In this document: positions 3,327 through 21,015 of the stretch, one piece after another
Numbering within the stretch: the stretch's first letter is position 1
Layout of the letters: the number at the start of each line of letters is the position of its first letter
NCBI GenBank assembly: GCA_017635675.1
Contig: JAGBLA010000108.1
Location: forward strand, 1 to 32,576
Direction: 5' to 3'
Source of the DNA: Ruminiclostridium sp.
GTDB taxonomy: Bacteria > Bacillota > Clostridia > Oscillospirales > Ruminococcaceae
DNA length: 32,576 nucleotides
Position numbers and translations under genes: made by a program
Notes under the pieces: model-generated
The model's input: the letters and a program-made list of their open reading frames with translations, nothing else
What the model was told of the DNA's origin: nothing
Databases searched by the model: none

Positions 3327-5309
3327 ATGAAAAAGAAAATGGGTCTGAAAAAGGCAGTTTTGCTTACAGTAAGCGCGGTAACGTCGATCACACTGCTATG
3401 CGTGTCGCTGATCGGTTACCTCGTGTCATTCAACAAGGTCAAGAATACGCTTACTGTTGAGACTGAACAGGCTCTTCTTGCCAACGCCGAGAAAATGAAT
3501 GCGTGGCTCGGAGAACAGTGCGTTTTCGCGGCGGCTCAGGCTAACGCGTCGGGAACTCTTTACGCGCTCAAGCCCGACCATTCCGGAGACCCTGATTTCA
3601 CAGCGACAGTGCTGCCGCTCAACAGCGCGCTGCTCGACGCATATACCTCCTACGAGGACAAGACTATCTACCTCGGCTCGGGTGCTGTCCTCTCGTCTGA
3701 CTTCGACCCCACGATACGTTCATGGTACACTGCCGCGAAGGCTCAGAACAAGGCGATATGCACTTCTCCATTCGTTGACGCTTCAACGGGCGGTATAATC
3801 TTCACAGTTGCGGCTCCGATAAAATCAAACGGAAGCTTTGTGGGAGTTTTCGGCTGTGACTTCAAGCTTGATGTACTCACCGGACTCGTAAGCAGCATGA
3901 AGCTCACCGAGCACGGCTATCCCATTCTTATCGACGCGGACGGCACATTCCTCGTTCACTCCAATTCCGATTACATGCCGACGGCGGACGGCAGGCTCAC
4001 TACGGTCAATACAGCGGCGGGAGAGTATTCAAAGGCTGTTTCGTCCCTCGGCAATGATGTGAGCATCGGGATATACAAGGACTACGACGGCACTGAAAAG
4101 TATTTCACTCTCAAGAAACTTGACAAAGCAGGCTGGACAGTAGGCTACATAATGCCGAAGGGAGACATCGAAGGCGCACTTGCAGACCTCGGTATAATGT
4201 TCCTTGTTATGTTCATCGTGTTCTTCGTGGGCGGAACAGGCATAGTATTCGTTGTTATCACGCGCCACTTAAAGCCTCTCGGAAAGCTTGCGGAGTCCGC
4301 TTCGCAGATAGCGAACGGCGACCTTTCGGCAGACCTTAGCTACGACACCGACGACGAGATAGGAAAGCTCTGCACAGAATTCGGAAAATGCATAGACGCG
4401 ATGCGCACTTATGTTGACGATATCTCCCACGTACTTACCGCGGTATCGACGGGTGATCTTACCGTTCCCCCGTCGGTTGAATACCGGGGTGACTTCAGAA
4501 AGATCGAGGATTCCATGCGCCTTATCCTTGACGAACTTAGCAGAATCATGTCGGATATCGACAACGAGAGCGCCCAGGTGATGAACGGTTCCAGCCAGAT
4601 GGCTGAGGGCTCACAGTCCCTTGCGGACGGCACCACCCGTCAGGCTTCCGCTATCCAGCAGATCTCCGCCACTATCGCGGAGGTGTCCTCTCAGATCGCC
4701 GCAACCGCGCAGAATGCTGCTCAGGCGGGCAGTCTCTCCAAACAGACCCAGAACAGGGTAAACGAGCAGGATACAGAGATACAGAACATGGTAAGCGCCA
4801 TGAATGATATAAGCAACACCTCACAGGAGATCGAGAAGATTATCAAAACCATCGAGGATATCGCATTCCAGACCAATATACTCGCGCTCAACGCGGCAGT
4901 CGAGGCTGCGCGTGCGGGTGACGCGGGCAAGGGCTTTGCGGTAGTTGCAGATGAAGTCCGCAACCTTGCGAGCAAGTCGGCAGAAGCCGCAAACTCCACC
5001 ACTTCGCTTATCACCGCGTCTATCGAGGCTGTCGGGAACGGCAGCAAGATAGCGCTCGCTACCGCGGAATCCATGAAGGAAGTCAAGGAAATGTCCGCAA
5101 AGACCGCCGAGCTTATCAACGAGATCGCGTCCGCAAGCGCAGAACAGAACGAGTCGATAAACCAGATCACAAGCGGCATCGAGCAGATATCGCAGGTAAT
5201 ACAGACAAACTCCGCGACGGCGGAGGAGACTGCCGCGTCCTGCGAGGAGCTTTCGGGACAGTCAAGGCTGCTTAAGGATCAGGTCGCTCGTTTCAGAATT
5301 AACAGATAA
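3327..5309 (+). CDS. Methyl-accepting chemotaxis protein with extracellular double-Cache sensor
   Basis: This 660-residue transmembrane chemoreceptor has TM1 at about 10-34, an extracellular dCache-type sensor at about 38-280 (including [20 protein letters not shown]), TM2 at about 286-312, HAMP at about 313-365 and a cytoplasmic signalling coiled coil to the end. The hairpin tip reads [20 protein letters not shown] (from about residue 509), the CheA/CheW contact region. The sensor type suggests small ligands such as amino or organic acids, but the ligand is unknown. GGAGG lies 11 bases before ATG 3327. A closer ATG at 3319 opens only a three-codon frame whose stop overlaps the real start, which suggests coupling or slight frame ambiguity. 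No cheA, cheW or flagellar gene lies in the window. The gene ends 13 bases before the hydrogenase-like sensor, so the two are probably co-transcribed. Confidence 0.93.
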
Positions 5310-5322
5310 ATCGAGGATAAAA

Positions 5323-7683
5323 ATGCAGATCACAGAATCGCTTGTCTATACGAATGACAAATGTATAGGCTGCAACAAATGTATTAATGTTTGCCCGGCA
5401 ATGGGCGCGTGTATGTCCGTCGATGTTGACGGTGCCAAGCGGCGTATCGCGGTGAACGGTACATACTGTGTTTCATGCGGTGCCTGTATGGATGCCTGCG
5501 TCCACAGCGCAAGGGAATTCAATGATGACACCGAACGCTTTTTTGAGGATCTTAAGGCGGGTCAGAAGATATCGCTCCTGCTTGCTCCGGCGTTCCTCGC
5601 AAACTATCCGAATCAGTACGGCTCGGTGCTCGGCGGATTGAAGCAGCTCGGCGTGAACCGCATCATATCCGTTTCATTCGGCGCAGACATCACTACCTGG
5701 GGCTATCTTAATTACATCAAGAAATACAACTACCTCGGCGGTATCTCTCAGCCCTGCCCCGCGGTCGTAAGATACATAGAGGATTACACTCCCGAGCTTC
5801 TCCCAAAGCTGTTCCCGATACACAGCCCGATGATGTGCGCTGCGGTGTACTGCCGCAAGGAGCTTAAGATCACAGACAAGCTTGCGTTCATATCCCCTTG
5901 TATCGCGAAAAAAATGGAGATAGACGATCCCAACAACGCGGGTCTTGTACAGTATAACGTAACATTCGACCACCTCATGAAGTACGTCAAGGAGCACAGG
6001 ATAAGCGGTCCGAACTGCACCGACGAGATAGAGTACGGTCTCGGTTCGATCTATCCAACTCCTGGCGGACTTAAGGAGAACGTGTACTGGTTCCTCGGAG
6101 AAGATGTCGCTATCCGCCAGATAGAAGGCGAAAAGCGTATGTACGAATGGCTCCAAAAGAACAGGAAGCGCATAAAGGACGGCACTACCCCGTTCCTGTT
6201 CATCGACGCGCTCAACTGCGAGAACGGCTGTATCTGCGGTACAGCGGTGGATCCTAAAATGTCCGAGACCGACGACGCGATGTACAATCTTCTGAAGATC
6301 AAAGAAGCGTCAAAGAAGAACCGCCCCGCAAGCGCATGGTCAAAGCACGCTTCCCCCAAAATGCGTCTTGCAGCTTTAAACAGACAGTTCAGACATCTGC
6401 GCCTTGAGGACTATATCCGCAAATATACCGACAGGTCAAAGAAAACAGAATACAAGACACCGTCGCCCACAGAGCTTGAATCTATATTCATATCCATGCG
6501 CAAGACCACGAAGCACAAGCAGAACATTAACTGCACCTGCTGCGGTTACTCCACCTGCACTCAAATGGCGACGGCGATATACAACGGGTTCAACGTCAAG
6601 GAGAACTGCATACACTACCAGAAAGACCACGACCAGCAGGAAATGGACCACGCGGAGTGCCTTGCAAAGGAAGTCGAGCGTCAGCGCGCGCAGGCTACGG
6701 GCGAGCATCACAAGCTCCTCTCGGCTATCGAGCGCATGGAAAACGAAGTAAACGACATCTACAAATCCATTGACGAAATGGCAGCGGGAAATGAGCGCAA
6801 CGCTTCCGACAGCAGCAACATAGCGCTTAAAATACAGGGAGTCTCAGATTTCACCGAGAACCTTGAAAAATCCATGAACGAGATACGCGGTCTTATCGAC
6901 CAGCTCGGCGCAAACAATAAGGAAGTCGTGAGCATAGCAAGCCATACCAACCTGCTTGCGCTCAACGCGGCAATAGAAGCTGCCCGTGCGGGTGAAGCCG
7001 GCAAGAGCTTCGCGGTCGTGGCGTCCGAGATCAAGAACCTCGCCGCAAACTCCGAGAACACCGCCAATAACAGCAACGAGAACCAGAAACAGATAGACGA
7101 ATCGGCACTAAGCATAATCAAGGGCGCGGAACAGCTCGCAACGGAAGTCGCAACAGTGAGCGACCTTACCAACAGTCTTGCCGAAGCTACCAACGAGATG
7201 TCCATTACCACGGAGGAGATACGAAGAAGCATAGGCAACGTCAAGAACGAGCTGAGCAATCTCGCCGTACCGGGAAGCAGCGACGGCACCGGAGGTTCGG
7301 GTCTGTACAGAAAGCATATTCTTATCGTTGAAGATGTTATCATCGGTGCGGAGATGCTCCGACAGATGCTCGCGGCTCTGGGAGCTTCCGCGGATATTGC
7401 CGAGAACGGTCAGAAGGCTGTCGAGATGTTTGAAGCCAGCACGCCGGGCGATTACGCCGCAATAATCATGGATATCCATATGCCGATAATGGACGGTATG
7501 GAAGCCACAAAAACTATACGCTCCATGTCCCGCCCTGACGCGGGAAGCGTACCTATCATCGCGCTTACGGCAAACAGCATAGAATACGACGCGCATAAGA
7601 CCGCAGGCGTCGGTATGAATGCTCACCTTACCAAGCCGGTAGATACGGCTGAGCTTATCAGAACACTCGAAAAACTTGTATAA
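5323..7683 (+). CDS. Soluble [FeFe]-hydrogenase-like chemosensor: ferredoxin + H-cluster domain + MCP signalling + receiver
   Basis: A 786-residue protein with no membrane segment. N-terminal 2[4Fe-4S] ferredoxin: C14/C17/C20/C24 and C49/C52/C55/C59. Hydrogenase large-subunit domain, about 80-310: the four H-cluster ligand positions are kept (C145 in QPCP; C193 in SPCIAKK; C299 and C303 in NCENGCICG), but the proton-shuttle Cys before the first ligand is Pro144 and the usual Met of the second motif is Ser191. A further Fe-S motif uses C404, C407, C412 and C429. Then a coiled coil with the chemoreceptor tip [18 protein letters not shown] (about 545) and a C-terminal receiver with D717, T749 and K771. 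This resembles sensory group C [FeFe]-hydrogenases, of which chemotaxis-linked forms are known. It probably senses redox state or H2 rather than turning over. The added receiver suggests phosphotransfer or adaptation feedback. Start: GAGGAT before ATG 5323. A strong terminator follows. Confidence 0.88.
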
Positions 7684-8729: not shown

Positions 8730-11700
8730 TCAGCCGTTCGTTGTTTTATTGTCTTCTGCGGCATCCTTTTCGCTGTACTTTATGCGGATATTCGTTATCG
8801 CGCACTGGTCGCCCGTGATCGCCGCATATATCGGACGGTCTATCCCGTTCATCATAGCTGTGTTCATAATTGATATGCCCGCATTTTCGGTGATAATAGT
8901 GATATTGCCGCCCTCTGCCTTAAATGTTACAAGAGCGTCATAGCCTTCCCTGTTGTAATTCTTCCATGCCTCCCAGCCGCCGAAGGCGTCGGTCTTGATG
9001 ACATTCACATCTGTATGACAGCTCGGGTCGCTCTCCCAGAACTCACCGTCAAACCGCATGAACGCAATGTCGCGGTAATTCTCACCGCCCACCTTGCCGT
9101 TATCGGAGCAGAAAATGTCGATATACGGGCAATGCCATACCAGCCGCGCTGTGGGCAGGCATTTCGCATGGAACGTTATGGTAAGCCCGTCCTCTATCTT
9201 TATGCCCTCGGAGTGCGCTGTCCGATAATCATCGACCTGAACATTCGGAATATCTCCCGCGGGCACATTGATATAGCTTATCTCCTCCGCTATCCTCGGT
9301 ATGTAGTCGGACGGAGACTCGGCTTCCGCCTTGACTGCCTTTATATCAAAGTAACGGCAGTGCTCGCCCGTAAGACCGATATGCAGATATCTTGAACTGT
9401 CGGGGAGCGCCGTAACGACCTCAACAATGCTGTTCCTGCCGATGACACGGATAAGAGCGTGGTCTTTTATCCTTACCGCCTCGATCTTGTAATCGCCGTT
9501 TTTCTTTATTTCATTGGAGACCGTGCCGATAGTCTTCGACTGCATCTTTCTTGCTCCGCCCGTCATGGTACGCCCGTCGAACCATATCTCGCCGTACTCG
9601 AAGTAAAGCAGATCCTTTATCTCCCGCTCGTCACTGTGGACACGCCCGTCAAGAGCGTCAAAGAGTATCAGCGACGGCTCGGGGCGGATACCCGTGGCTT
9701 CCTCGTCCGACCCGAGCGACAATGTGACAGTCGTCATTTTCGGGGTCACGAGTATCCCCTCGGACACGCTGCTTCTGTATTCTCCCACGGTAAGGTCGGA
9801 TATGCCCTCTGCGTCCTGGCTCTCGTCCCTTTCCTTCATCATATACTCGGTATCGAGGTCGATAAGGTGCAGCATATATCCCGCGAACACAGGGTCGAAC
9901 TGTGTTTCCGAGCCCTTGACGATCTCCTCGCGCACCTTCTGCTGGGGTATCGGGTCACGATAGCTTCTCTTGGAGGTCATAGCGTCATAAGCGTCAGCCA
10001 CCGATATCATTCTCGCTATCTCGGGTATCTCCTCGCCCTTCAGCCCCTCGGGATAGCCCTTGCCGTCATAGCGCTCGTGATGATAGTGCGCGCCGACGCT
10101 AAGATACGGAAATCCTGTTATGCTCGATAGTATCTGAACGCCCTTTGTCGGGTGCTGTTTGATTATGCTGTATTCTTCATCGGTAAGTCTGCCGTTCTTG
10201 TTGATGATGCTGCCGGGAACGCCTATCTTTCCGACGTCGTGCAGCAGCGCCGCATAGTAGATGTCATCGCATTCCTTTTCGGTCTTGCCCGCGAGCTCGG
10301 CTATCTTTCTCGAATACTCCGCGACTCTTGCGGAGTGTCCGTGAGTATATTTATCCTTCGCATCTATGGCGTTTACGAGCGCTGTCGCGGTCTGGTCGAA
10401 CAGCCGCCTCTGCTCCGCCTCACGCTGACGGAACCTTTCGGTCTTTTTCATAAGGTACAGTCGTATGCCGCCCCAGATTATGAGCATACCCGCAAGTATG
10501 CATATAAGGTAGAACCACCACTGCTCATAGAAAGCACGCTCCTTTATGATAAGGACGGAAAGCTCCTTGTTACCGCGTCCCATTGCGTCCTTCACACTGA
10601 GCACGAAACGATACTCGCCGCCGCTTAAGTTCGTATAGTCCACAGGTACGAGCTCACTTCTGCTTACCGTAACGCTCTCACGGTCAAAGCCCTCAAGCTG
10701 AAAGCTGACCTGCGGATCCATGAGTGAATAGTTATAGACATAGCTCGGAATGGTTATCTTCTGAGTGCCGCTTGTAACGGTGAAGCTGCCGGAGCTGTCG
10801 GGGTATATAATCTCACCGTCAGCCTCGATGTAAGGTATAAGTGCTTTAAGGTCGCTGACATTCTCGAATGACTTCTCGATATTGACTTTTCCGACGCCCG
10901 TTGTTCCCGCTATGTAGAGGTCGCCGTCGGCAGTAAGGTCGCTGTATGAGTTTGCGGTAGCGATACACGGAAGTCCGCTCGCCGCGCTGTAAAACACGGG
11001 AGTGATGTCTCCGTTCGCAATAAGGTCAGCGGCGGGCAGCACATAAATACCGTTGCTGCTCAGCACCCACATATCTCCATTGCTGTTACGATACAGGTCA
11101 AAGTTGTTCGGGTACGGGAAGTTATTTATCTTTGTCACCTTATGATCGGGTGTCATGTAGGCAAGGGCGCTGCTTGTGACTATCCAGACCACATTGTTGT
11201 CGGGGTCGCGCTTCAATCGCATTACGATATCCGAAGGAAGCCCTTCCGCGACATCTATGTTCTCCACTCCGTTATCATCTATGATGTAAAGTCCGCCGCC
11301 GTTGCTGCCGAGGAGTATCTCACCGTTCAGTCCCTCCTCCGCGGTAAGGCTCTCGATGTTCAGTATGCCGTCTTCCTTTCCGTAGGAGGCTGTCACCTTA
11401 TCGTCCTTGATGATATTCACGCCGCCCGTAAGCGCTACGATCATACTTCCGTCGCTGCACTCGCTTACCGAGCGTAAGCTTATGGACAGCAGTCCGTCCT
11501 CCTCGGTGACCGCGGTGAGCTCACCGTGGTCATAGCGCAGCAATCCGTATTTGCGCCATGTGGATATCCATACCCTGTCCTTGCTGTCGCGTATCACCGA
11601 GCGGATACGGCAGCCTTCAAGCAGCTTTATAAGATCATTTTCACCGAGATCCGCGCCCGAAACGGTCTTAGCCTTCGTCAGAGGCATGGCAGATACAGGA

Positions 11701-12866
11701 CCGTTATCGTCCAGAACCGTAAGCCCCGTATCGGTAGCCACAAACAGCTTACCGTCATAGGCACAGGTTGAATTGACCACAGCTTCCGAAAGTCCGAAGC
11801 GCTCGAATATATCTGCAAACTGGTTAGGCACGACCTTCATAACGCCCTGGCGTGTGGATGTGAACCACAGATTGCCGAGATAGTCGGTCATAACGTGACC
11901 GATGTTATTGTCCATGGGCAAATTCTCCAGCAGTGTGAAAGTCCCGTTCTCAAAAACGCCTATACCGTTTGTCGCGCATATCCATACCTTGCCGTCGATG
12001 TATTCAAGCGATTTTATGTAATTGAGCGGCTCGATCCCGATCTTTTCTAATATCTCATAGCCTTCGCTGATATCTATGTAGTAAAGCTGAAGATCGGCAG
12101 CCTCCTGGTACAGCTTTCCGGGCTCCGTCAGCGAGGGAAGTATAGCTCCCGCGCCGTGGAACGGGTTTTCCTCGGCGCTTATGAACCTTGCGAGCGCGCC
12201 GTCCCGCAGCATGATAAGATCTCCGAGGTCCGTTGTCCCGTAGATATACCCGCCGGTCCCCGTGCGAAGATCGCGCATATTCGCTTCGGCTATCGCCTCA
12301 TCGTCGATGTGTTTAAGGTCGTAGTCACGGTCGATCGTAGTAATGCCGCTTGTGGTGGCGACATAGATGATACCATTCTCGTCCTCGGTAATGGCGCGGA
12401 TATGAGCCGAACTCATGCCGTCGAGCTTTCCCCACATACGGATACCGCCGTTCTCCATGACCCCCACGCCGTTATCGTTGGTGCCTATCCAAAGCCTGTC
12501 GGAACTGTCAACATACAGGCACTTTATGCTCGTGAGACCGCTTGACGGATCCATGCGCTCAAAGGTGTTGCCGTCATAGCGTATCAGACCCGCATAGCTT
12601 CCTATCCATATAAATCCGTCGGACGTTTCCGTGATAGCGTTAGCTTCTGAGGTCGGCAGACCGTTTGAATTGTCGTAAAGCACTGCCGAAAAGCCTTCGC
12701 TCAGTCCCGTCGGATCGACGCTCAGGTGCCTGTTCGGAATACCTGAGGAGTTCAGAGGGAAATCCTCCGCCCCCGCGGATACAGCTCCGTGAAAAACACA
12801 GCATATCGCAAGAACGCCCGCCGTGAACAGTGACGCTATCCTTTTCTTTATCGAATATATATTCAT
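8730..12866 (-). CDS. Beta-propeller sensor / HD-GYP phosphodiesterase with duplicated C-terminal domain
   Basis: This is a 1378-residue membrane sensor. An N-terminal signal or anchor (about 8-32) is followed by many two-component-regulator propeller repeats (for example DGFIWIGSYAGLIRYDG, LWFTSTRQGVM; about 55-690). Next come a Y_Y_Y-type beta domain (about 705-775, GGEYRFVLSVKDAMG), a membrane helix (about 782-805), a short coiled coil and an HD-GYP domain (about 835-1010). The catalytic HD pair is H876-D877 in LLHDVGKIG, and HHERYDGKGYP near 930 carries the GYP motif, so c-di-GMP hydrolysis is expected. After it lie two homologous beta-rich domains (about 1025-1195 and 1205-1370), both starting (E/D)YR...SEGI and ending in TG(E/D)xC...(D/N)I(K/R). 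The propeller probably binds an extracellular ligand, perhaps a carbohydrate as in HTCS sensors. AAAGGGG and a 17-bp-spaced promoter precede it. Confidence 0.92.
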   Translation of the reverse strand: MNIYSIKKRIASLFTAGVLAICCVFHGAVSAGAEDFPLNSSGIPNRHLSVDPTGLSEGFSAVLYDNSNGLPTSEANAITETSDGFIWIGSYAGLIRYDGNTFERMDPSSGLTSIKCLYVDSSDRLWIGTNDNGVGVMENGGIRMWGKLDGMSSAHIRAITEDENGIIYVATTSGITTIDRDYDLKHIDDEAIAEANMRDLRTGTGGYIYGTTDLGDLIMLRDGALARFISAEENPFHGAGAILPSLTEPGKLYQEAADLQLYYIDISEGYEILEKIGIEPLNYIKSLEYIDGKVWICATNGIGVFENGTFTLLENLPMDNNIGHVMTDYLGNLWFTSTRQGVMKVVPNQFADIFERFGLSEAVVNSTCAYDGKLFVATDTGLTVLDDNGPVSAMPLTKAKTVSGADLGENDLIKLLEGCRIRSVIRDSKDRVWISTWRKYGLLRYDHGELTAVTEEDGLLSISLRSVSECSDGSMIVALTGGVNIIKDDKVTASYGKEDGILNIESLTAEEGLNGEILLGSNGGGLYIIDDNGVENIDVAEGLPSDIVMRLKRDPDNNVVWIVTSSALAYMTPDHKVTKINNFPYPNNFDLYRNSNGDMWVLSSNGIYVLPAADLIANGDITPVFYSAASGLPCIATANSYSDLTADGDLYIAGTTGVGKVNIEKSFENVSDLKALIPYIEADGEIIYPDSSGSFTVTSGTQKITIPSYVYNYSLMDPQVSFQLEGFDRESVTVSRSELVPVDYTNLSGGEYRFVLSVKDAMGRGNKELSVLIIKERAFYEQWWFYLICILAGMLIIWGGIRLYLMKKTERFRQREAEQRRLFDQTATALVNAIDAKDKYTHGHSARVAEYSRKIAELAGKTEKECDDIYYAALLHDVGKIGVPGSIINKNGRLTDEEYSIIKQHPTKGVQILSSITGFPYLSVGAHYHHERYDGKGYPEGLKGEEIPEIARMISVADAYDAMTSKRSYRDPIPQQKVREEIVKGSETQFDPVFAGYMLHLIDLDTEYMMKERDESQDAEGISDLTVGEYRSSVSEGILVTPKMTTVTLSLGSDEEATGIRPEPSLILFDALDGRVHSDEREIKDLLYFEYGEIWFDGRTMTGGARKMQSKTIGTVSNEIKKNGDYKIEAVRIKDHALIRVIGRNSIVEVVTALPDSSRYLHIGLTGEHCRYFDIKAVKAEAESPSDYIPRIAEEISYINVPAGDIPNVQVDDYRTAHSEGIKIEDGLTITFHAKCLPTARLVWHCPYIDIFCSDNGKVGGENYRDIAFMRFDGEFWESDPSCHTDVNVIKTDAFGGWEAWKNYNREGYDALVTFKAEGGNITIITENAGISIMNTAMMNGIDRPIYAAITGDQCAITNIRIKYSEKDAAEDNKTTNG

Positions 12867-15476: not shown

Positions 15477-15505
15477 ATTATATCACAGGAAACGGGCGTT
15501 GTCAA
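15477..15505 (-). promoter_or_regulatory. Consensus sigma-A promoter for the MATE gene
   Basis: On the minus strand, TTGACA (15500-15505), a 17-base spacer and TATAAT (15477-15482) match the consensus in full. The leader is about 120 bases. The -35 lies 71 bp from the -35 of the divergent promoter at 15577. Confidence 0.9.
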
Positions 15506-15576
15506 TACGTCTTTTTCCGCTGCAGATACGGGTTTCCGCCATATATCGCGGAAAACACGGCCAAAGAGATCATGTA

Positions 15577-15605
15577 TTGACACGCGGGTTTTTATATGGT
15601 ATAAT
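15577..15605 (+). promoter_or_regulatory. Consensus sigma-A promoter for the GGDEF / HD-WYL / RelA-SpoT operon
   Basis: TTGACA (15577-15582), a 17-base spacer and TATAAT (15600-15605) match consensus in full and lie 57 bases before the GGDEF start codon. I see no other promoter before the terminator at 20984-21015, so it probably drives all three genes. Confidence 0.9.
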
Positions 15606-15661
15606 ACAGGGAGTAAAAGTTTCATATAATACGACCTATAATATATTATAAAGGTGAAAGC

Positions 15662-17533
15662 ATGAAAAAAAAGATCACGGGAATCGCAGGAGACCTGAAA
15701 CGATCGGGATTAAGACATATTCTTGCAGCAGCGGCAGCTCCGCTGTTCTTTGTCGTGCTTACGGTAGTATATTTTGTTTTCATGACAGCCTCAGTAAAGG
15801 AAAGCATTATAAGCAACGGCGAGATAAGCTGCATAAGATCGGCAAACCGCTTTGACAACTATCTTCTCAACGGCAAGGATTCCATACGCACCGCCGCGTA
15901 CACCATTGATACGCTCATGCGGGACAAACGCCCGTCCGAGGAGATACTCGCGTACATGACGCTTCAGTCCGAGTGTATAATCAATACGGTGAACAAGGAC
16001 TTCACAGGTTTTTACGGCTACATAAACGGCGAATACCTCGACAGCTCGGGGTGGGTGCCGGAAGATGATTACGTCCCCACGGAACGCCCGTGGTACACCG
16101 ATGCCCTCCGGATGAACGGAAGTCTCGCCCTCGTGGAGCCTTATGTTGACGCAAAGACACAAACAGTCATTTTAACACTCGCACAGCTGCTGAGCGACGG
16201 GAAAAGCGTGGTAGCGCTCGACATGAGCCTCGATACCGTTCAGAAGATTACAGAGGAGATAGCCGAGTCCGATGCCGACACCCAGGCTATGGTCATCACC
16301 GACAGCGGAAGCGTCGTAGCGCACTCGGACAAGCAGGAGCTCGGCAAAAACTACCGCGAAGAGAAAGGCACCCTCGGAGCGGAAGCCGCTGCCCGTGTAT
16401 TCTTGATGAAAGACAGCCATTACGAGATAGCCTTCGCGGGTCAGCAGTATATCGTATACAGCGTGCCTATCGAGAATAACTGGCGCAGCGTTTCGGTGAT
16501 AGGCTCGGGAAATGCCCTGGCACCGCTTAAAATACTAATGGCGGTAACGGTCATAGTGCTCACGGCGACAGCGGCTATCGCGGGCTCGGTGTTCATGAAC
16601 ATTTTCAGAAAAGGCATCGCGGAGGAAAAGCTGAACTTCCAGCTCTCCTCTATCGCGGATATCTATATGACCGTGTTCGACCTTAATGTTATAAATGACA
16701 CTTACAGCGAGATATCGTCAAAAGACCCGCTCGTCAGCGAGCTTGCAGACAACGGCGGAAATAATATGCGCGAAACGCTCTACTATGTGACCGATAAGCT
16801 CACAAACGAGCTGTCAAAGGAGTCCGTGCGTGAGTTCGTGGACATCGACACGCTCGAGGAACGGCTTTCCGAGACCAATACTATCACTCTTGAGTTTCTC
16901 AACCACAACAATCTCTGGTTCCGCGCAAGATTTATCGTTTCAGAGCGCACCGCCGCAGGCAGACTTTCGCACGTTATGTTCACCACAGAGCTTATAGACA
17001 AGGAAAAGCGCGACCGCGACAAGCTCCTGTACCTGTCCGAGACAGACCGCATGACAGGCGTTAGCAACCGCGGAAGCGGCGAGCACAAGATACGCGTTAT
17101 GCTCAGCAATAACGAACATGGTATGTTCATGCTCCTTGACGCGGACAAATTCAAGTCGATAAACGACACATACGGTCACGCTGTGGGCGACAAGGTGCTG
17201 ATGTCGATCGCGTACAGCATGCAGCACACGTTCCGAAGCGTTGATGTGGTAATGCGGCTCGGCGGAGACGAATTTGCGGCGTTCATTCCCGGCGTTACTG
17301 ATATCGAAACAGGCAGAAATATGACAGAACGGTTGTTTGAATGTATAGACAACGTACATATCCCCGAGCTCGGGGAACGCAGGATAGCCGTAAGTGTAGG
17401 CGCGGCGTTCTATCTCGACGGCGACAGCTATCCGTTCGAGGAGCTATACAAGCGCGCCGACAGCTGCACCTACATAAGCAAGCGGCACGACGGCAATTAT
17501 GCCGCATTCTACGGTTTCGACTCCGATGAATGA
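15662..17533 (+). CDS. Membrane diguanylate cyclase (dCache + GGDEF)
   Basis: The 623-residue protein has TM1 at about 20-42 and an extracellular dCache-type sensor at about 45-288. The sensor includes RPWYTDALRMNG and VEPYVDAKTQTVILTLAQL, the ligand-pocket pattern of this fold. TM2 (about 292-316), a linker of about 130 residues (possibly PAS-like) and a C-terminal GGDEF domain (about 455-620) follow. The active-site motif is intact: RLGGDEF with GGDEF at 534-538. The product-inhibition I-site RSVD (525-528) sits five residues before it, as in feedback-regulated cyclases. It should make c-di-GMP in response to an external small molecule. AAGGTG precedes the ATG. The HD-WYL gene starts 15 bases after its stop, so the signal and the downstream alarmone-type pair are probably co-expressed. 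Confidence 0.94.
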   Translation: MKKKITGIAGDLKRSGLRHILAAAAAPLFFVVLTVVYFVFMTASVKESIISNGEISCIRSANRFDNYLLNGKDSIRTAAYTIDTLMRDKRPSEEILAYMTLQSECIINTVNKDFTGFYGYINGEYLDSSGWVPEDDYVPTERPWYTDALRMNGSLALVEPYVDAKTQTVILTLAQLLSDGKSVVALDMSLDTVQKITEEIAESDADTQAMVITDSGSVVAHSDKQELGKNYREEKGTLGAEAAARVFLMKDSHYEIAFAGQQYIVYSVPIENNWRSVSVIGSGNALAPLKILMAVTVIVLTATAAIAGSVFMNIFRKGIAEEKLNFQLSSIADIYMTVFDLNVINDTYSEISSKDPLVSELADNGGNNMRETLYYVTDKLTNELSKESVREFVDIDTLEERLSETNTITLEFLNHNNLWFRARFIVSERTAAGRLSHVMFTTELIDKEKRDRDKLLYLSETDRMTGVSNRGSGEHKIRVMLSNNEHGMFMLLDADKFKSINDTYGHAVGDKVLMSIAYSMQHTFRSVDVVMRLGGDEFAAFIPGVTDIETGRNMTERLFECIDNVHIPELGERRIAVSVGAAFYLDGDSYPFEELYKRADSCTYISKRHDGNYAAFYGFDSDE

Positions 17534-17548
17534 CAACGAGAGGTACCA

Positions 17549-19186
17549 ATGAAAGAAAACCCGGAAGAAAGATTTGAAGAGGCGCTGAAATTCGCGAAAC
17601 TTAAGCACTCCGGGCAGGAGCGCAAGGACGGGTCGCCGGCTATAATACACCCGATATCGGTCGAAAAAACGGTACGGGAAAAGGGCGGAGACATCGACTG
17701 CCGTATCGCCGCGCTGTTCCACGACCTGCTGGAGGACACCGACGCTTCCGAAAAAGAGATAGAAGCTATCGGCGGTGAAAGAGTGTTAAAGCTCGTGAAG
17801 CTGCTGACGAAAAAGCCAGGTTATGTCATGCGTGAGTACGTGAACGGGATACTTTCGGATAAGGACGCTGTGCTGATAAAGGGCGCGGACAGGCTCCACA
17901 ACCTGCGCAGCGCCCTTCTTGCCGACGAGGATTTCCGCCTTAAATACATAAAAGAGACCGAGGAATGGTACATGGACTTTCTGCCGGAGATACCGCCGAT
18001 GACGGAGGCTCTGCGCAGCTCGCTCATGGGAAGCTTGGATCTGACAGCTATCGTTGAAATGCTTATCATAACTGCGACCTACGATTCGCCCGTGTCTCCG
18101 GAGATGCTATGTAAAGCTTTCACGGGTGCAAAAGAAAAAGATATCCGTTACGCGCTTGACGCATACACCGACAGGCTCCTGCCGCTCAATGTGACTATAA
18201 GGAAGAAGGACGGCGGCTACTATGCCGAGCTTCCGTTCAGCGAAACGGATATCATTATCCTGCGCGCCGCCCTGCACGGCAATCCGTACTGTGAAAAAGC
18301 CCAGGCGGACAAGCTTTCGGAAAGGCTGAGCATGCTGCTGCCGTGGTATATGCGTGAGACAAACGACAATAACGGCATCAGCACGGAACGATACCCTGGA
18401 ACCTTCTATGACAATATTACAGCGCTTATCAAGGCACTGTACCCCCTTCCGGACGAAAACGGCGAGACGAACTATAAGAAAGTCACATTCCGCACCTGTG
18501 ACCATGGACCTGACGGCACGATGATACCCCGTACTGATCAGAACGGCTGTATCAGAGAATACAAGGTAAACCCTCTCAAGATCTTCTGCAAGAACAACAG
18601 TTTCTACCTTCTCACATACAGCGTCAGAGATCATGCGCCGATAAAATACATTACCTTCCGCATTGACAGGATAACAGATGTAAAATGCACCGATGAAGAC
18701 GCCGAGCCCTATGAGAGCGGGCTTTCCGCTGAACAAACGGAAATGCTTAAACTAAAAGACAAGCTTTTCCGCAGCCGTTTTCTGTCAAAATACACCGGAA
18801 ATATATATCCCGAACCGGAGCATGACCCCGCACAGCTGAACGCTGTCGAGTGTATGGACAGCCGTGGGTTCAGCCTGCGTGACTACTTCTATAAAAACAG
18901 CGTTATGTTCGTTGACAGGAACATACCGTCTGCCCGCATAAAGGTCAAGCGGACGTTCATGAACACTATGATCGATACATTCGGATATGACTATGACCTG
19001 ATATGCTCGGACGACACCTTCTGCACGATTCAGGTGCATAATGTGGCGCAGAATGCTCTGGTAAAGCTTGCGGTGGAATTTGAAGACATGGCGGAGATCA
19101 CAGACAACAGCGAGATCCGTGAGGAAATACGCCAAAAGCTGATGCGGCTCACAGAGAAGTATAAGGAAGACAGCGATAATGAGTGA
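17549..19186 (+). CDS. HD alarmone-hydrolase-like domain fused to a winged-helix/WYL/WCX regulator
   Basis: This is a 545-residue cytoplasmic protein. Residues 1-145 are an HD domain of the RelA/SpoT/MESH1 hydrolase type: HSGQERKDGSPAIIHP with H34, FHDLLEDT with H58-D59 and E62-D63, and KGADRLHNLRS with D114 and N118, so all metal-site and catalytic residues are present. Residues 160-235 resemble the winged helix of WYL regulators, ending in KKDGGYYAELPFSE. About 305-380 is WYL-like (VNPLKIFCKNNSFYLLTY, then FRIDRITDV). About 460-540 matches the WCX tail (FEDMAEI and EIREEIRQKLMRLTEKY). I infer an alarmone or nucleotide pyrophosphohydrolase joined to a ligand-sensing DNA-binding regulator. 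The fusion is unfamiliar to me. AGAGGT lies 6 bases before the ATG. Its stop overlaps the next gene by 8 bases, implying translational coupling and a joint role, perhaps as antitoxin or regulator. Confidence 0.82.
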   Translation: MKENPEERFEEALKFAKLKHSGQERKDGSPAIIHPISVEKTVREKGGDIDCRIAALFHDLLEDTDASEKEIEAIGGERVLKLVKLLTKKPGYVMREYVNGILSDKDAVLIKGADRLHNLRSALLADEDFRLKYIKETEEWYMDFLPEIPPMTEALRSSLMGSLDLTAIVEMLIITATYDSPVSPEMLCKAFTGAKEKDIRYALDAYTDRLLPLNVTIRKKDGGYYAELPFSETDIIILRAALHGNPYCEKAQADKLSERLSMLLPWYMRETNDNNGISTERYPGTFYDNITALIKALYPLPDENGETNYKKVTFRTCDHGPDGTMIPRTDQNGCIREYKVNPLKIFCKNNSFYLLTYSVRDHAPIKYITFRIDRITDVKCTDEDAEPYESGLSAEQTEMLKLKDKLFRSRFLSKYTGNIYPEPEHDPAQLNAVECMDSRGFSLRDYFYKNSVMFVDRNIPSARIKVKRTFMNTMIDTFGYDYDLICSDDTFCTIQVHNVAQNALVKLAVEFEDMAEITDNSEIREEIRQKLMRLTEKYKEDSDNE

Positions 19187-20984
19187 GTTTTATGTGTGCT
19201 ATGCATGGAACAAAATTGCAGATATCACCGACAGTTCTTTATATATCCTAAAGGTCAATTACAGTCTGAACGAATACGGCGAGCTCGTATGGGAGGGCTG
19301 TACCCGGCTCAGCCCTTTGATGTATGACCTCATCGGGTTTGATTTGTTTACCCCGCCCTTCGAGCGGCTCCCGGATGTGTACACCGACGATAATGGTATC
19401 GTCCGCCTGAAAGCCTGTCGGAATGCCGCGGAATACACCGGTTACAATCCCATGAGGATACTCCCGTATAAATCCGGGTTCTTCCGCACGATAACACTTA
19501 TCGGCGTAACAAAACGGGAGAAACCGAGGTTCAGGACATTCAACATGACTAATCGCAGGATAGAGATACTTGACGAGCATTACTGCGATTACGGCTATTT
19601 CGTGTGCGACTACAACGGTTCCGTGTCCTACCTCACAAAGGAACAGACCATTTCCATAATCAACCGCTACGGCGCGGCAAACGCGGTCTCGGACGGCGAC
19701 AGGATAAAATTGATAACATGGGACGATGAGACAGGTGATACCGATGATATCACCGACGGTCTTCCGCGCCTTGAGGATGTGGGACTGCCGCTTTTTGCCC
19801 CGCCGGAAAACACAGCAGCCGCCGACAATATGGCTCCGTACTCCGACGCGGACGATAATACCGCCGTATTTGACATCGCAGATCTGCGGACATACGCTGA
19901 TTCGTTCTTTACTATAAGACGTCAGAGAATAAAAAATGATACCGCGCTTACGGAGTTCACCGAGAGCATTGAGGCTTTTCACCAGGCGCTCGTTTTCGGC
20001 ACCGTGTCGGAACATGCGTACATGAAGATACGCGGCAAGCTCGGAAGCTTCAGAGAACGGCTCGAAAGCGGGAGCGAGTACCAATTCATCGAGAACGACC
20101 TGATGTCACAGCTGCGCGGGATACCGTTCGTTCGGACAGATGCATTTAACGAAATGCTTAGTCACCGTAAAAGCGCCCTTGAGCGTCTGGTGAACTTGCA
20201 GACGCTGTGCGACATGAATCGTGACATCGTAAGAAGATACTCCGAGCACCTGCTTGCCGAGACATGGCTTACAAAATGTATGAGTAAGCTCTGCGAAAAG
20301 ACCGGTACGCGGCTTGAAGGCACCGAAACGCGTATCAAATCACCTGCCTCGCTGTACGGAAAGCTGTATGAACGAAACAGCAAGGAGGGCAAAACACCCG
20401 AGGAGCTGTTCGGCGGCACCTGCGATATAATACGCTATACCGTATGCTTTGACGAACCGACGGATTACTGCGGCGGTACCGAGGCTTTCATAAAAGAGCT
20501 TATAGGGCAGTTCCCCGGCTCTCAGCTCGAACGGTTCCGCAATTACTGGACGCCGTACGTATCAAATCAGTACAGGGGGATAAATACCGTCATACGCCTG
20601 CCGGATATGTGCTATGATCACCGCTCCGACCGACTCGTGAGCGGCAGATACAGCAATTCCCGAAACTGCACACCGATACGGAGCCTTTGCTTTGAGGTGC
20701 AGTTCCATACTGCCGCAAGCTTAAAGATAAAGGAAGATACCCATAAGATGTATGAGAAGCTGCGCCGGCACGATACCGACGGCAATGAACGGGCAATGAT
20801 AAAGGCAGATATGGAGAAGGCAAACGAGCAGCTTGAAGTGCCGGAGGGCGCACCGTTCATGTCTTTGGTGTCCAACGAGTATATCGAAGCCATGAAAGCT
20901 CTGCGGGAGCACCTCGACCGCGCACTTGACGGCATTCGGGATAATGCGGGGATCTGTCTTGCCGACACATCTGCGTTACAATAA
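19179..20984 (+). CDS. Large protein with a C-terminal RelA/SpoT-type nucleotidyltransferase domain
   Basis: This is a 601-residue cytoplasmic protein. Residues 1-220 match no family I recognise. About 225-370 is helical and charged. About 370-530 is a RelA/SpoT-fold domain: R385-I-K387, S391 and K395 reproduce the R-x-K-x3-S-x3-K pyrophosphate-donor motif, D416 follows in DIIRYTV, Y465 is the nucleotide-stacking Tyr in NQYRGINT, and E506 lies in FEVQFHT before THKMYEKLR. Two features differ from housekeeping Rel: DxxGxR is DIIRYT, and the His of the Y-x-x-x-H motif is N469. The YxGINT / EVQFHT pattern is one I associate with RelA/SpoT-like polymorphic toxins. It may pyrophosphorylate a nucleotide or tRNA. 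There is no TGS, ACT or own HD domain. AAGGAAG lies in the upstream gene's end, and the 8-base overlap couples it to the HD-WYL protein. Confidence 0.82.
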   Translation: MSEFYVCYAWNKIADITDSSLYILKVNYSLNEYGELVWEGCTRLSPLMYDLIGFDLFTPPFERLPDVYTDDNGIVRLKACRNAAEYTGYNPMRILPYKSGFFRTITLIGVTKREKPRFRTFNMTNRRIEILDEHYCDYGYFVCDYNGSVSYLTKEQTISIINRYGAANAVSDGDRIKLITWDDETGDTDDITDGLPRLEDVGLPLFAPPENTAAADNMAPYSDADDNTAVFDIADLRTYADSFFTIRRQRIKNDTALTEFTESIEAFHQALVFGTVSEHAYMKIRGKLGSFRERLESGSEYQFIENDLMSQLRGIPFVRTDAFNEMLSHRKSALERLVNLQTLCDMNRDIVRRYSEHLLAETWLTKCMSKLCEKTGTRLEGTETRIKSPASLYGKLYERNSKEGKTPEELFGGTCDIIRYTVCFDEPTDYCGGTEAFIKELIGQFPGSQLERFRNYWTPYVSNQYRGINTVIRLPDMCYDHRSDRLVSGRYSNSRNCTPIRSLCFEVQFHTAASLKIKEDTHKMYEKLRRHDTDGNERAMIKADMEKANEQLEVPEGAPFMSLVSNEYIEAMKALREHLDRALDGIRDNAGICLADTSALQ

Positions 20985-21015
20985 AAAAGAGCTTTCCCGC
21001 GGGAAGGCTCTTTTT
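20984..21015. terminator. Bidirectional rho-independent terminator
   Basis: AAAAAGAGC (20984-20992) pairs with GCTCTTTTT (21007-21015), extended inward by TTTCCC/GGGAAG with one G-T pair. The A-run and T-run allow use from both sides. It closes the plus-strand operon and the convergent gene at 21032. Confidence 0.92.

What the first reader, a model, noticed from the sequence alone, without database searches (positions are those of the whole stretch)
15577..21015. Self-contained three-gene operon linking c-di-GMP synthesis to a split alarmone hydrolase/synthetase pair with a WYL regulator
One consensus promoter and one strong terminator enclose three genes: a Cache-GGDEF cyclase with intact active site and I-site, an HD(alarmone hydrolase)-winged helix-WYL-WCX protein, and a RelA/SpoT-fold protein overlapping it by 8 nt. 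WYL regulators are known to control defence loci (CapW, BrxR) and DNA-damage responses (PafBC, DriD), and paired hydrolases neutralise toxic small alarmone synthetases. The arrangement suggests a toxin/antitoxin-like or stress module in which an external signal, through c-di-GMP, could set the activity or expression of the pair. I know of no described system with this set.
Basis: partly seen in the sequence, partly recalled or inferred. Interest (0 to 1): 0.82.

Follow-up and report, generated by a model that had tools for sequence, protein, structure and literature searches.

The report
Alarmone synthetase–hydrolase operon with WYL regulator
A bacterium carries a three-gene unit that appears to pair an enzyme making a potentially toxic stress nucleotide with an enzyme that destroys it, the destroyer being built into a likely gene regulator, plus a maker of a second signalling nucleotide; the make-and-destroy pairing is a known kind, but this packaging seems to be new.

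Summary
In detail: a perfect sigma-70 promoter, three co-directional genes and a terminator-like hairpin. Gene 1 is Cache-GGDEF. Gene 2 is an alarmone-type HD hydrolase fused to a WYL protein. Gene 3 is an uncharacterised 340-residue N-terminal region plus a RelA/SpoT-fold synthetase domain that lies with the adenosine 3'-pyrophosphokinases and exported alarmone synthetases, not with canonical SAS/Rel, and keeps the catalytic residues. Four gene-3 loci are known, window included: WYL overlaps gene 3 in 4 of 4; the same HD subfamily is fused to WYL (2) or stands alone within about 2.3 kb (2); GGDEF is present in 2 of 4. The whole operon recurs in a close relative at another locus, far more diverged than Rel. 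HD-synthetase pairs also stand on 6 of 6 Rhodococcus plasmids read, but this HD subfamily lacks a recognised synthetase neighbour in 5 of 9 genomes. Best reading: a toxSAS-like synthetase/hydrolase module whose hydrolase-antitoxin is fused to a WYL regulator. A c-di-GMP input rests on linkage alone. No structure could be predicted; no activity was measured.

The parts
15577..15605 (+). sigma-70 promoter, perfect consensus (TTGACA-17-TATAAT, extended -10)
   Evidence: a perfect promoter also precedes the operon in G038 (L005 13992-13964), with TATATGGTATAATA shared
15662..17533 (+). gene 1: membrane Cache-GGDEF diguanylate cyclase, GGDEF motif and RxxD I-site present
   Evidence: 71% identical to the G038 copy
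17549..18028 (+). gene 2, HD domain (about residues 1-160): alarmone hydrolase type, motif residues H34, H58, D59, E62, D63, D114, N118 present (their roles are recalled)
18035..19186 (+). gene 2, winged-helix (by position) - WYL - WCX-like part (about residues 163-545); lines up from its start with the WYL-only proteins of G068 and L012
19179..20198 (+). gene 3, N-terminal region (about residues 1-340), no recognised domain, conserved in all four homologs
20199..20984 (+). gene 3, RelA/SpoT-fold synthetase domain of the Apk/EAS clade
20992..21006 (+). hairpin terminator (longer stem visible in the sequence), also between gene 3 and its convergent neighbour

Best explanation
The operon is a synthetase/hydrolase (toxSAS-antitoxin-like) module. 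Gene 3 transfers pyrophosphate from ATP to the 3'-OH of an adenine and/or guanine nucleotide, making (p)ppApp and/or (p)ppGpp at a level that can stop growth. The HD domain of gene 2 removes the 3'-pyrophosphate and acts as the antitoxin. The WYL half of gene 2 is a ligand-gated DNA-binding protein that controls the operon; because HD and WYL are one polypeptide, detoxification and regulation are held together. In two loci a Cache-GGDEF cyclase is co-directional in the same operon and may feed an outside signal in through c-di-GMP. Shown by sequence: architecture, catalytic residues, clade of the synthetase, linkage of HD + WYL + synthetase in 4 of 4 loci, operon and promoter kept in two genomes. 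Inferred: the activities, toxicity, neutralisation, autoregulation and any c-di-GMP effect.
For: Gene 3: the only PDB sequence hit at E<=10 is 8vx3, SaEAS. tblastn reaches head morphogenesis proteins of Mannheimia and Pasteurella phages (2e-5, 1e-3), by host and protein type most likely the Apk2 toxins of PMC12226406 (accessions not matched). With the 8vx3 index taken as native minus 35, the residue whose change inactivates SaEAS (D121) and its ATP-binding R124, N169, E182, Q184 fall on D416, R419, N469, E506, Q508, identical in all four homologs. Motifs reported as typical of adenosine 3'-pyrophosphokinases (RYT, GxN, YH) read RYT, GIN, FH. A tree of 15 rows splits gene 3 + Apk-type from canonical SAS/Rel with 100/99. 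HD: motifs kept. Linkage: WYL overlaps gene 3 in 4 of 4; same HD subfamily fused (2) or within about 2.3 kb (2). G025: canonical SAS overlapping this HD subfamily. Rhodococcus plasmids: HD + Apk-type synthetase + third ORF in 6 of 6 read, 8-nt HD/synthetase overlap in 5 of 6. Sporadic: gene 3 in 3 of 71 genomes of the genus, own included. G000 vs G038: Rel 93.5%, neighbour gene 96%, CarD 87%, but gene 1 71%, gene 2 56%, gene 3 47.5%, and different flanks.
Against: No activity or toxicity data. The HD subfamily also occurs with no synthetase recognised by eye nearby in 5 of 9 genomes (G048, G026, G246, G321, G387; three of these on short or edge contigs), so it is not an obligate antitoxin. The one Streptomyces record read has an Apk-type gene with no HD gene annotated in the 4.9 kb stretch. 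In PMC12226406 the hydrolase Aph1 neutralised two of three Apk2 domains only partly. The Rhodococcus HD is just 29% identical to gene 2's. A conserved 340-residue N-terminal region is unexplained and could make gene 3 a regulated, non-toxic enzyme or an exported one. The SaEAS K154 position is R in the window and C in L012. In both fused HDs the usual PYITHP reads PAIIHP/AAIIHP. No operator was identified: a dyad in the window (15533-15554) is not among the inverted repeats of the G038 upstream region. None of the 41 genus genomes that are at least 90% complete and at most 5% contaminated has gene 3; the carriers are drafts, the window's own with 7% contamination.
Confidence: 0.58

Rival explanations
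1. A non-toxic signalling circuit: gene 3 is a regulated (p)ppGpp/(p)ppApp synthetase with a sensory N-terminal region, gene 2 sets the level of the same messenger and reads it through WYL, and the Cache-GGDEF adds a second messenger. Nothing is killed; the unit tunes gene expression.
For: Large conserved non-catalytic N-terminal region; same operon as a membrane sensor cyclase in two genomes; a perfect consensus promoter, which suggests steady expression. A SAS of Treponema denticola, not of this clade, held down by a TPR domain, is reported as not toxic in E. coli (PMC10434055, passages).
Against: The Apk/EAS enzymes described in PMC12691689 and PMC12226406 slow or kill E. coli from the cytoplasm, to different degrees; sporadic distribution, different sites and fast divergence look like a conflict or TA locus.
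Confidence: 0.2
2. An exported effector with immunity: the N-terminal region is a delivery domain, the C-terminal region the toxic synthetase, and gene 2 the cytoplasmic immunity hydrolase.
For: Relatives of the synthetase domain are C-terminal toxin domains on MuF, WXG/LXG, XopAD or PAAR carriers (PMC12691689 section 9).
Against: No signal peptide seen by eye (no predictor was run) and no delivery domain called by Pfam or PDB sequence search in the four homologs; no secretion genes among the 17 window genes scanned (not all window genes); overlapping with a WYL gene in 4 of 4.
Confidence: 0.1
3. A tRNA-directed toxSAS: gene 3 pyrophosphorylates tRNA 3' ends and HD reverses this, as for FaRel2/CapRel-type toxins.
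For: Some toxSAS enzymes act on tRNA (PMC11782079, passages; PMC12691689, passages).
Against: The domain groups with nucleotide-acceptor Apk/EAS enzymes, not with canonical SAS, and keeps the RYT and GxN motifs; tRNA-acting toxSAS were not themselves placed in the tree.
Confidence: 0.1

Closest known systems
Apk2 - IapK - Aph1 (MuF polymorphic toxin, adenosine 3'-pyrophosphokinase, and its two immunity genes)
   Same: homologous synthetase domain with RYT and GxN motifs; a dedicated hydrolase gene next to it
   Different: no MuF domain called; the hydrolase is fused to WYL; order hydrolase then synthetase; no room for an IapK gene between gene 3 and the terminator (an IapK homolog was not searched for elsewhere)
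FaRel / ATfaRel (toxSAS with small alarmone hydrolase antitoxin)
   Same: synthetase and SAH in one operon; Rhodococcus HD-synthetase-third ORF resembles the three-gene FaRel operon as described in PMC11782079 (passages)
   Different: Apk/EAS-clade synthetase, long N-terminal region, WYL fusion, GGDEF gene
Exported alarmone synthetases (SaEAS, PDB 8vx3)
   Same: closest solved structure by sequence; catalytic Asp and four of five named ATP-binding residues kept
   Different: no signal peptide seen by eye, no delivery domain called; linked hydrolase, whereas SaEAS has no immunity gene beside it
WYL regulators of defence and DNA-damage loci (CapW, BrxR, PafBC, DriD)
   Same: WYL with a likely N-terminal winged helix, next to a potentially lethal effector (search listing and abstract starts)
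   Different: carries an alarmone hydrolase domain, not mentioned in the abstract starts listed; ligand unknown

Membership tests
RelA/SpoT-fold pyrophosphokinase | catalytic Asp and Glu, R-x-K-S motif, E-x-Q motif | tested here: met
   R385/K387/S388, D416, E506/Q508 invariant in four homologs; mapped on SaEAS
Apk / EAS synthetase clade | groups with Apk/EAS rather than with canonical SAS/Rel; RYT and GxN motifs | tested here: met
   tree of 15 rows (4 gene 3; 1 Streptomyces and 3 of the 6 Rhodococcus rows; 7 canonical), split 100/99, long branches warned of; motifs
Apk / EAS synthetase clade | makes (p)ppApp and/or (p)ppGpp | not testable with these tools
   no assay
Exported alarmone synthetase | signal peptide or known secretion-recognition domain | tested here: inconclusive
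   no convincing Pfam or PDB hit to the N-terminal region; signal peptide judged by eye only; structure prediction unavailable
Small alarmone hydrolase (HD) | HP, HDxxED and ADRxHN motifs (recalled) | tested here: met
   invariant in A6; profile hits to Rel and Mesh1 structures
toxSAS toxin-antitoxin module | synthetase genetically linked to a hydrolase or binding antitoxin | tested here: met
   4 of 4 loci, window included
toxSAS toxin-antitoxin module | synthetase toxic, partner neutralises | not testable with these tools
   needs expression assays
WYL transcription regulator | WYL domain above the curated cut-off with wHTH in front | tested here: inconclusive
   WYL 27.7 bits vs 21.8; wHTH inferred from position only
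Known anti-phage defence system | match to a PADLOC model other than generic WYL | tested here: not met
   only CRISPR-associated WYL models match gene 2 and nothing at E<=1 matches genes 1 and 3; the L012 gene 3 has a weak PifA match, 0.0056
c-di-GMP controlled module | effector that binds c-di-GMP | not tested
   no c-di-GMP receptor domain was called by Pfam in genes 2 and 3; binding by WYL not testable here

The most novel reading that the evidence does not exclude
A self-contained two-messenger circuit: a (p)ppApp-type alarmone made by gene 3 is at once the ligand sensed by the WYL domain and the substrate destroyed by the HD domain of the same polypeptide, so gene 2 is a self-erasing alarmone receptor-regulator, and a Cache-GGDEF cyclase of the same operon lets an outside signal gate it through c-di-GMP. 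This would be a transcription factor that reads (p)ppApp and a direct wiring of c-di-GMP to it.
Probability: 0.2. Interest if true: 0.85.

Novelty: new variant of a known kind. Interest (0 to 1): 0.57.

Why it matters
WYL domains sit next to many defence and damage-response genes, and for most their ligand is unknown (recalled). A WYL protein fused to an enzyme with a predictable nucleotide substrate names a candidate ligand class and makes it directly testable. It would also be a case of an Apk/EAS-type synthetase kept under the control of its own cell rather than shipped out as a weapon.

Tried and rejected
Considered and rejected: (1) ordinary housekeeping SAS: the genome has its own Rel (G000:C31) and gene 3 is outside the canonical rows of the tree. 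(2) Chance neighbourhood: operon order, the 15-nt gap (with the ATG start of gene 2 in G038), the 8-nt overlap and the promoter are kept in G038 at another locus. A rough estimate of finding the HD subfamily within 5 kb of gene 3 by chance is 4e-4 per locus (crude, uses 6 of 71). (3) Known defence system: PADLOC gives only generic WYL models for gene 2 and nothing for gene 3. (4) Similarity of the gene-3 N-terminal region to gene 2's WYL part: hhalign probability 6%. (5) Phage gene: the one IMG/VR contig (L012) has ordinary bacterial neighbours (AraC-type regulator and GH113; an alcohol-dehydrogenase-like ORF by eye).

Led nowhere: genome contigs with the single protein (12 stretches, none a relative); viral contigs with gene 2 (107 stretches, none a relative); PDB search with the N-terminal region (one hit, E 0.64); operator search. 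Wider searches found no further full-length homolog: own genome only among 297 family genomes and 394 order genomes (where two others had short C-terminal matches, not pursued). A first relatives search listed G091; its protein groups with canonical SAS and was dropped from the gene-3 count.
Full report
1. What is there. The window is a complete contig of a draft genome (G000:C60; 223 contigs, 85% complete, 7% contamination). A perfect promoter (15577-15605), three genes in one direction and a terminator-like hairpin (20992-21006) are as described. The exact promoter pattern occurs twice in the window, mean 0.00 in 100 shuffles; the other copy is divergent, with 71 bases between the two, in front of the MatE gene. 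Gene 1 to gene 2 is a 15-nt gap; genes 2 and 3 overlap by 8 nt (ATGAGTGA).

2. Gene 1 (15662-17533) is a Cache-GGDEF protein (the dCache match is just under its cut-off) with GGDEF and an RxxD five residues before it, both kept in the G038 copy. Its nearest listed relatives outside the operon (57, 57, 50, 50% in G061, G058, G024, G059, where at most 18 candidates per genome were scored) stand with no HD-WYL or gene-3 neighbour among the ORFs listed (two of these contigs are 5-8 kb long). So the cyclase belongs to a more general family and was recruited here.

3. Gene 2 (17549-19186). Residues 1-160 are an HD domain of the alarmone hydrolase kind (TIGR00691 8.1e-24; Rel and Mesh1 structures). 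HP, HDLLED and ADRLHN are invariant in the four HDs of alignment A6. Residues 163-545 carry a WYL domain, with WCX called at E<=1 in 3 of 8 members of the alignment, not in the window protein. The winged helix is inferred from position. The WYL-only proteins of G068 and L012 line up with gene 2 from about residue 163 on, so the fusion joins two units that elsewhere are separate genes.

4. Gene 3 (19179-20984). The first 340 residues are conserved among four homologs but match nothing convincing in Pfam (weak hits in single members, best 0.037) or the PDB (one hit, 0.64). The rest is a synthetase domain: part of NCBIfam XopAD 8.9e-16, PDB 8vx3 4.3e-10 as the only PDB hit, and phage head morphogenesis proteins of Mannheimia and Pasteurella by tblastn (2e-5 and 1e-3). 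The PDB calls 8vx3 'SaSAS'; I take it to be the SaEAS of PMC12691689 (outline with abstract, passages, sections 5 and 9 read), because that paper's text holds the code 8VX3 and describes the same double mutant. With the chain index as native minus 35 (M48 = L83M, A86 = D121A), SaEAS D121, R124, N169, E182, Q184 fall on D416, R419, N469, E506, Q508, identical in all four homologs. The fifth named ATP-binding residue, K154, is R in the window, K in G038 and G068, and C in L012. PMC12226406 (abstract, sections 3 and 11 read) gives RYT, GxN and YH as motifs of adenosine 3'-pyrophosphokinases, against AVR, SxH and IR in guanosine enzymes; gene 3 has RYT, GIN, FH. SaEAS, which shows RYT and GLN in the alignment, makes both adenine and guanine products, so the motifs do not fix the product. 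A tree of 15 domain sequences (4 gene 3, 4 Apk-type, 7 canonical SAS/Rel) splits gene 3 plus Apk-type from canonical with 100/99 support; gene 3 alone has 87/83 and the Apk-type rows 71/67, and long branches were warned of.

5. Relatives. Gene 3 was found in 3 of 71 genomes of the genus, own included, in none of the 41 that are at least 90% complete and at most 5% contaminated; in the own genome only of 297 of the family and full-length in the own genome only of 394 of the order; on two contigs of genome contigs whose lengths match the G038 and G068 contigs; and on one IMG/VR contig, L012. That is four distinct loci, all draft or metagenome contigs, two of them bins of one sample by their titles. 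WYL overlaps gene 3 in 4 of 4 (8, 8, 4 and 11 nt, the last with the ATG start). The HD subfamily is fused to WYL in 2, and is a stand-alone gene in 2: about 2.2 kb away in the opposite direction (G068, L006 658-1137) and about 2.1 kb downstream behind a zinc-ribbon gene (L012). GGDEF is beside it in 2 of 4.

6. Independent pairs. In G025 a canonical SAS (RelA_SpoT 2.5e-20) overlaps a stand-alone HD of the same subfamily (53% identical). On six Rhodococcus plasmids (all six Rhodococcus records among the 39 hits; 11 Prescottella, 16 Pseudomonas and others not read) an HD gene, the Apk-type synthetase and a third ORF stand in a row. HD and synthetase overlap by 8 nt in five of six, and restriction or DNA methyltransferase genes lie beside them in five of six stretches. 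That HD is only 29% identical to gene 2's. Against this: the one Streptomyces record read has an Apk-type gene beside an XRE regulator and no HD gene annotated. And the close HD subfamily was found in 9 genomes (6 of 71 in the genus; three more in the family sample of 297, where four rows score 250-298 bits and the next 95); in 5 of those 9 (G048, G026, G246, G321, G387) no synthetase was recognised by eye in the stretch read, three of them on short or edge contigs. A further IMG/VR contig, L050, has an HD 44% identical and no synthetase recognised by eye.

7. Evolution. Between G000 and G038 Rel is 93.5% identical over 663 residues, the F420-ligase-like neighbour 96%, CarD 87%; gene 1 is 71%, gene 2 56%, gene 3 47.5%. 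In G000 the operon lies between MatE and the F420-ligase-like gene; in G038 between Tex and a pyridoxal-kinase-like gene. The G000 copy of that kinase gene has no such operon within 1.5 kb, and the 12 kb around the G038 F420-ligase-like gene holds none either. Rare, found at different sites and fast-diverging is what conflict or TA loci look like, though separate acquisition from diverged sources would look the same.

8. Mechanism. I favour a toxSAS/antitoxin-like module: gene 3 makes (p)ppApp and/or (p)ppGpp, HD removes it, WYL regulates. Steps shown: domain content, active-site residues, linkage. Steps inferred: every activity. That Apk/EAS enzymes slow or kill E. coli from the cytoplasm is from PMC12691689 and PMC12226406 (one of three Apk2 domains was weak); that a linked hydrolase protects by removing the product is from PMC12226406, where protection against the two strong toxins was partial. 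WYL regulators acting at defence and DNA-damage loci is from a search listing with abstract starts. In the 2014 WYL survey (PMC4012209, passages only) WYL is fused to Cas3 with its HD domain, to nucleases and to a nucleotidyltransferase; the words SpoT and ppGpp do not occur in its held text.

9. Novelty. Full-text searches for WYL domain with alarmone (7 papers, all listed), WYL with c-di-GMP (10, all listed), two of four EAS/Apk2/SAS/WYL terms since 2023 (2, neither holding WYL), three of four WYL/HD/TA terms (91, 12 listed), alarmone synthetase/hydrolase with regulator and fusion terms (5), ppApp with messenger and regulator terms (837, 15 listed) and toxSAS with hydrolase (8) listed no paper whose title or abstract start describes this set. 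I opened five papers: PMC12691689, PMC12226406, PMC11782079 (passages), PMC4012209 (passages) and PMC10434055 (passages). Subscription papers are mostly not held. The synthetase-hydrolase pair is known; the HD-WYL fusion next to an Apk/EAS-clade synthetase and the link to a GGDEF gene appear undescribed: a new variant of a known kind.

10. Limits. Four loci is a small sample. Neighbourhoods were partly judged by eye.

Noticed in passing
window 8730-12866 (-): 1378-aa protein with two-component-regulator propeller, Y_Y_Y and an HD domain with HD-GYP motifs (HD...HHERYDGKGYP, by eye), a probable c-di-GMP phosphodiesterase two genes from the GGDEF operon.
   Followed up: partly
window 5323-7683 (+): 786-aa fusion of Fe-only hydrogenase large-subunit domain, MCP signalling domain and response-regulator receiver; looks like a sensory hydrogenase. 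In G043 its homolog lies beside the F420-ligase-like gene.
   Followed up: no
window 15477-15505 (-) and 15533-15554: A second perfect promoter, divergent, toward the MatE gene, and an 11+11 nt dyad TTTCCGCCATA/TATCGCGGAAA between the two promoters, a possible operator; not among the repeats found upstream in G038.
   Followed up: partly
window 3327-5309 and L005 16433-18421: A Cache-MCP gene 72% identical to the window's MCP lies about 2.5 kb from the G038 operon, although the operons sit at different loci.
   Followed up: no
L045 1486-3094: Canonical SAS (PADLOC candidate PDC-S33, 5e-16) overlapping a stand-alone HD of the gene-2 subfamily: a likely separate toxSAS-type pair.
   Followed up: partly
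L123 3340-5127 and L157-L161: Rhodococcus plasmid three-gene set HD / Apk-type synthetase / 186-aa ORF, next to restriction or methylase genes in five of six; looks like a toxin-antitoxin module of its own.
   Followed up: partly
L006 6545-12042: Beside the G068 WYL-gene 3 pair stand an AAA ATPase (weak IetA/TRIP13 matches), an RNA ligase and a PARG-type gene, a conflict- or repair-like cluster.
   Followed up: no
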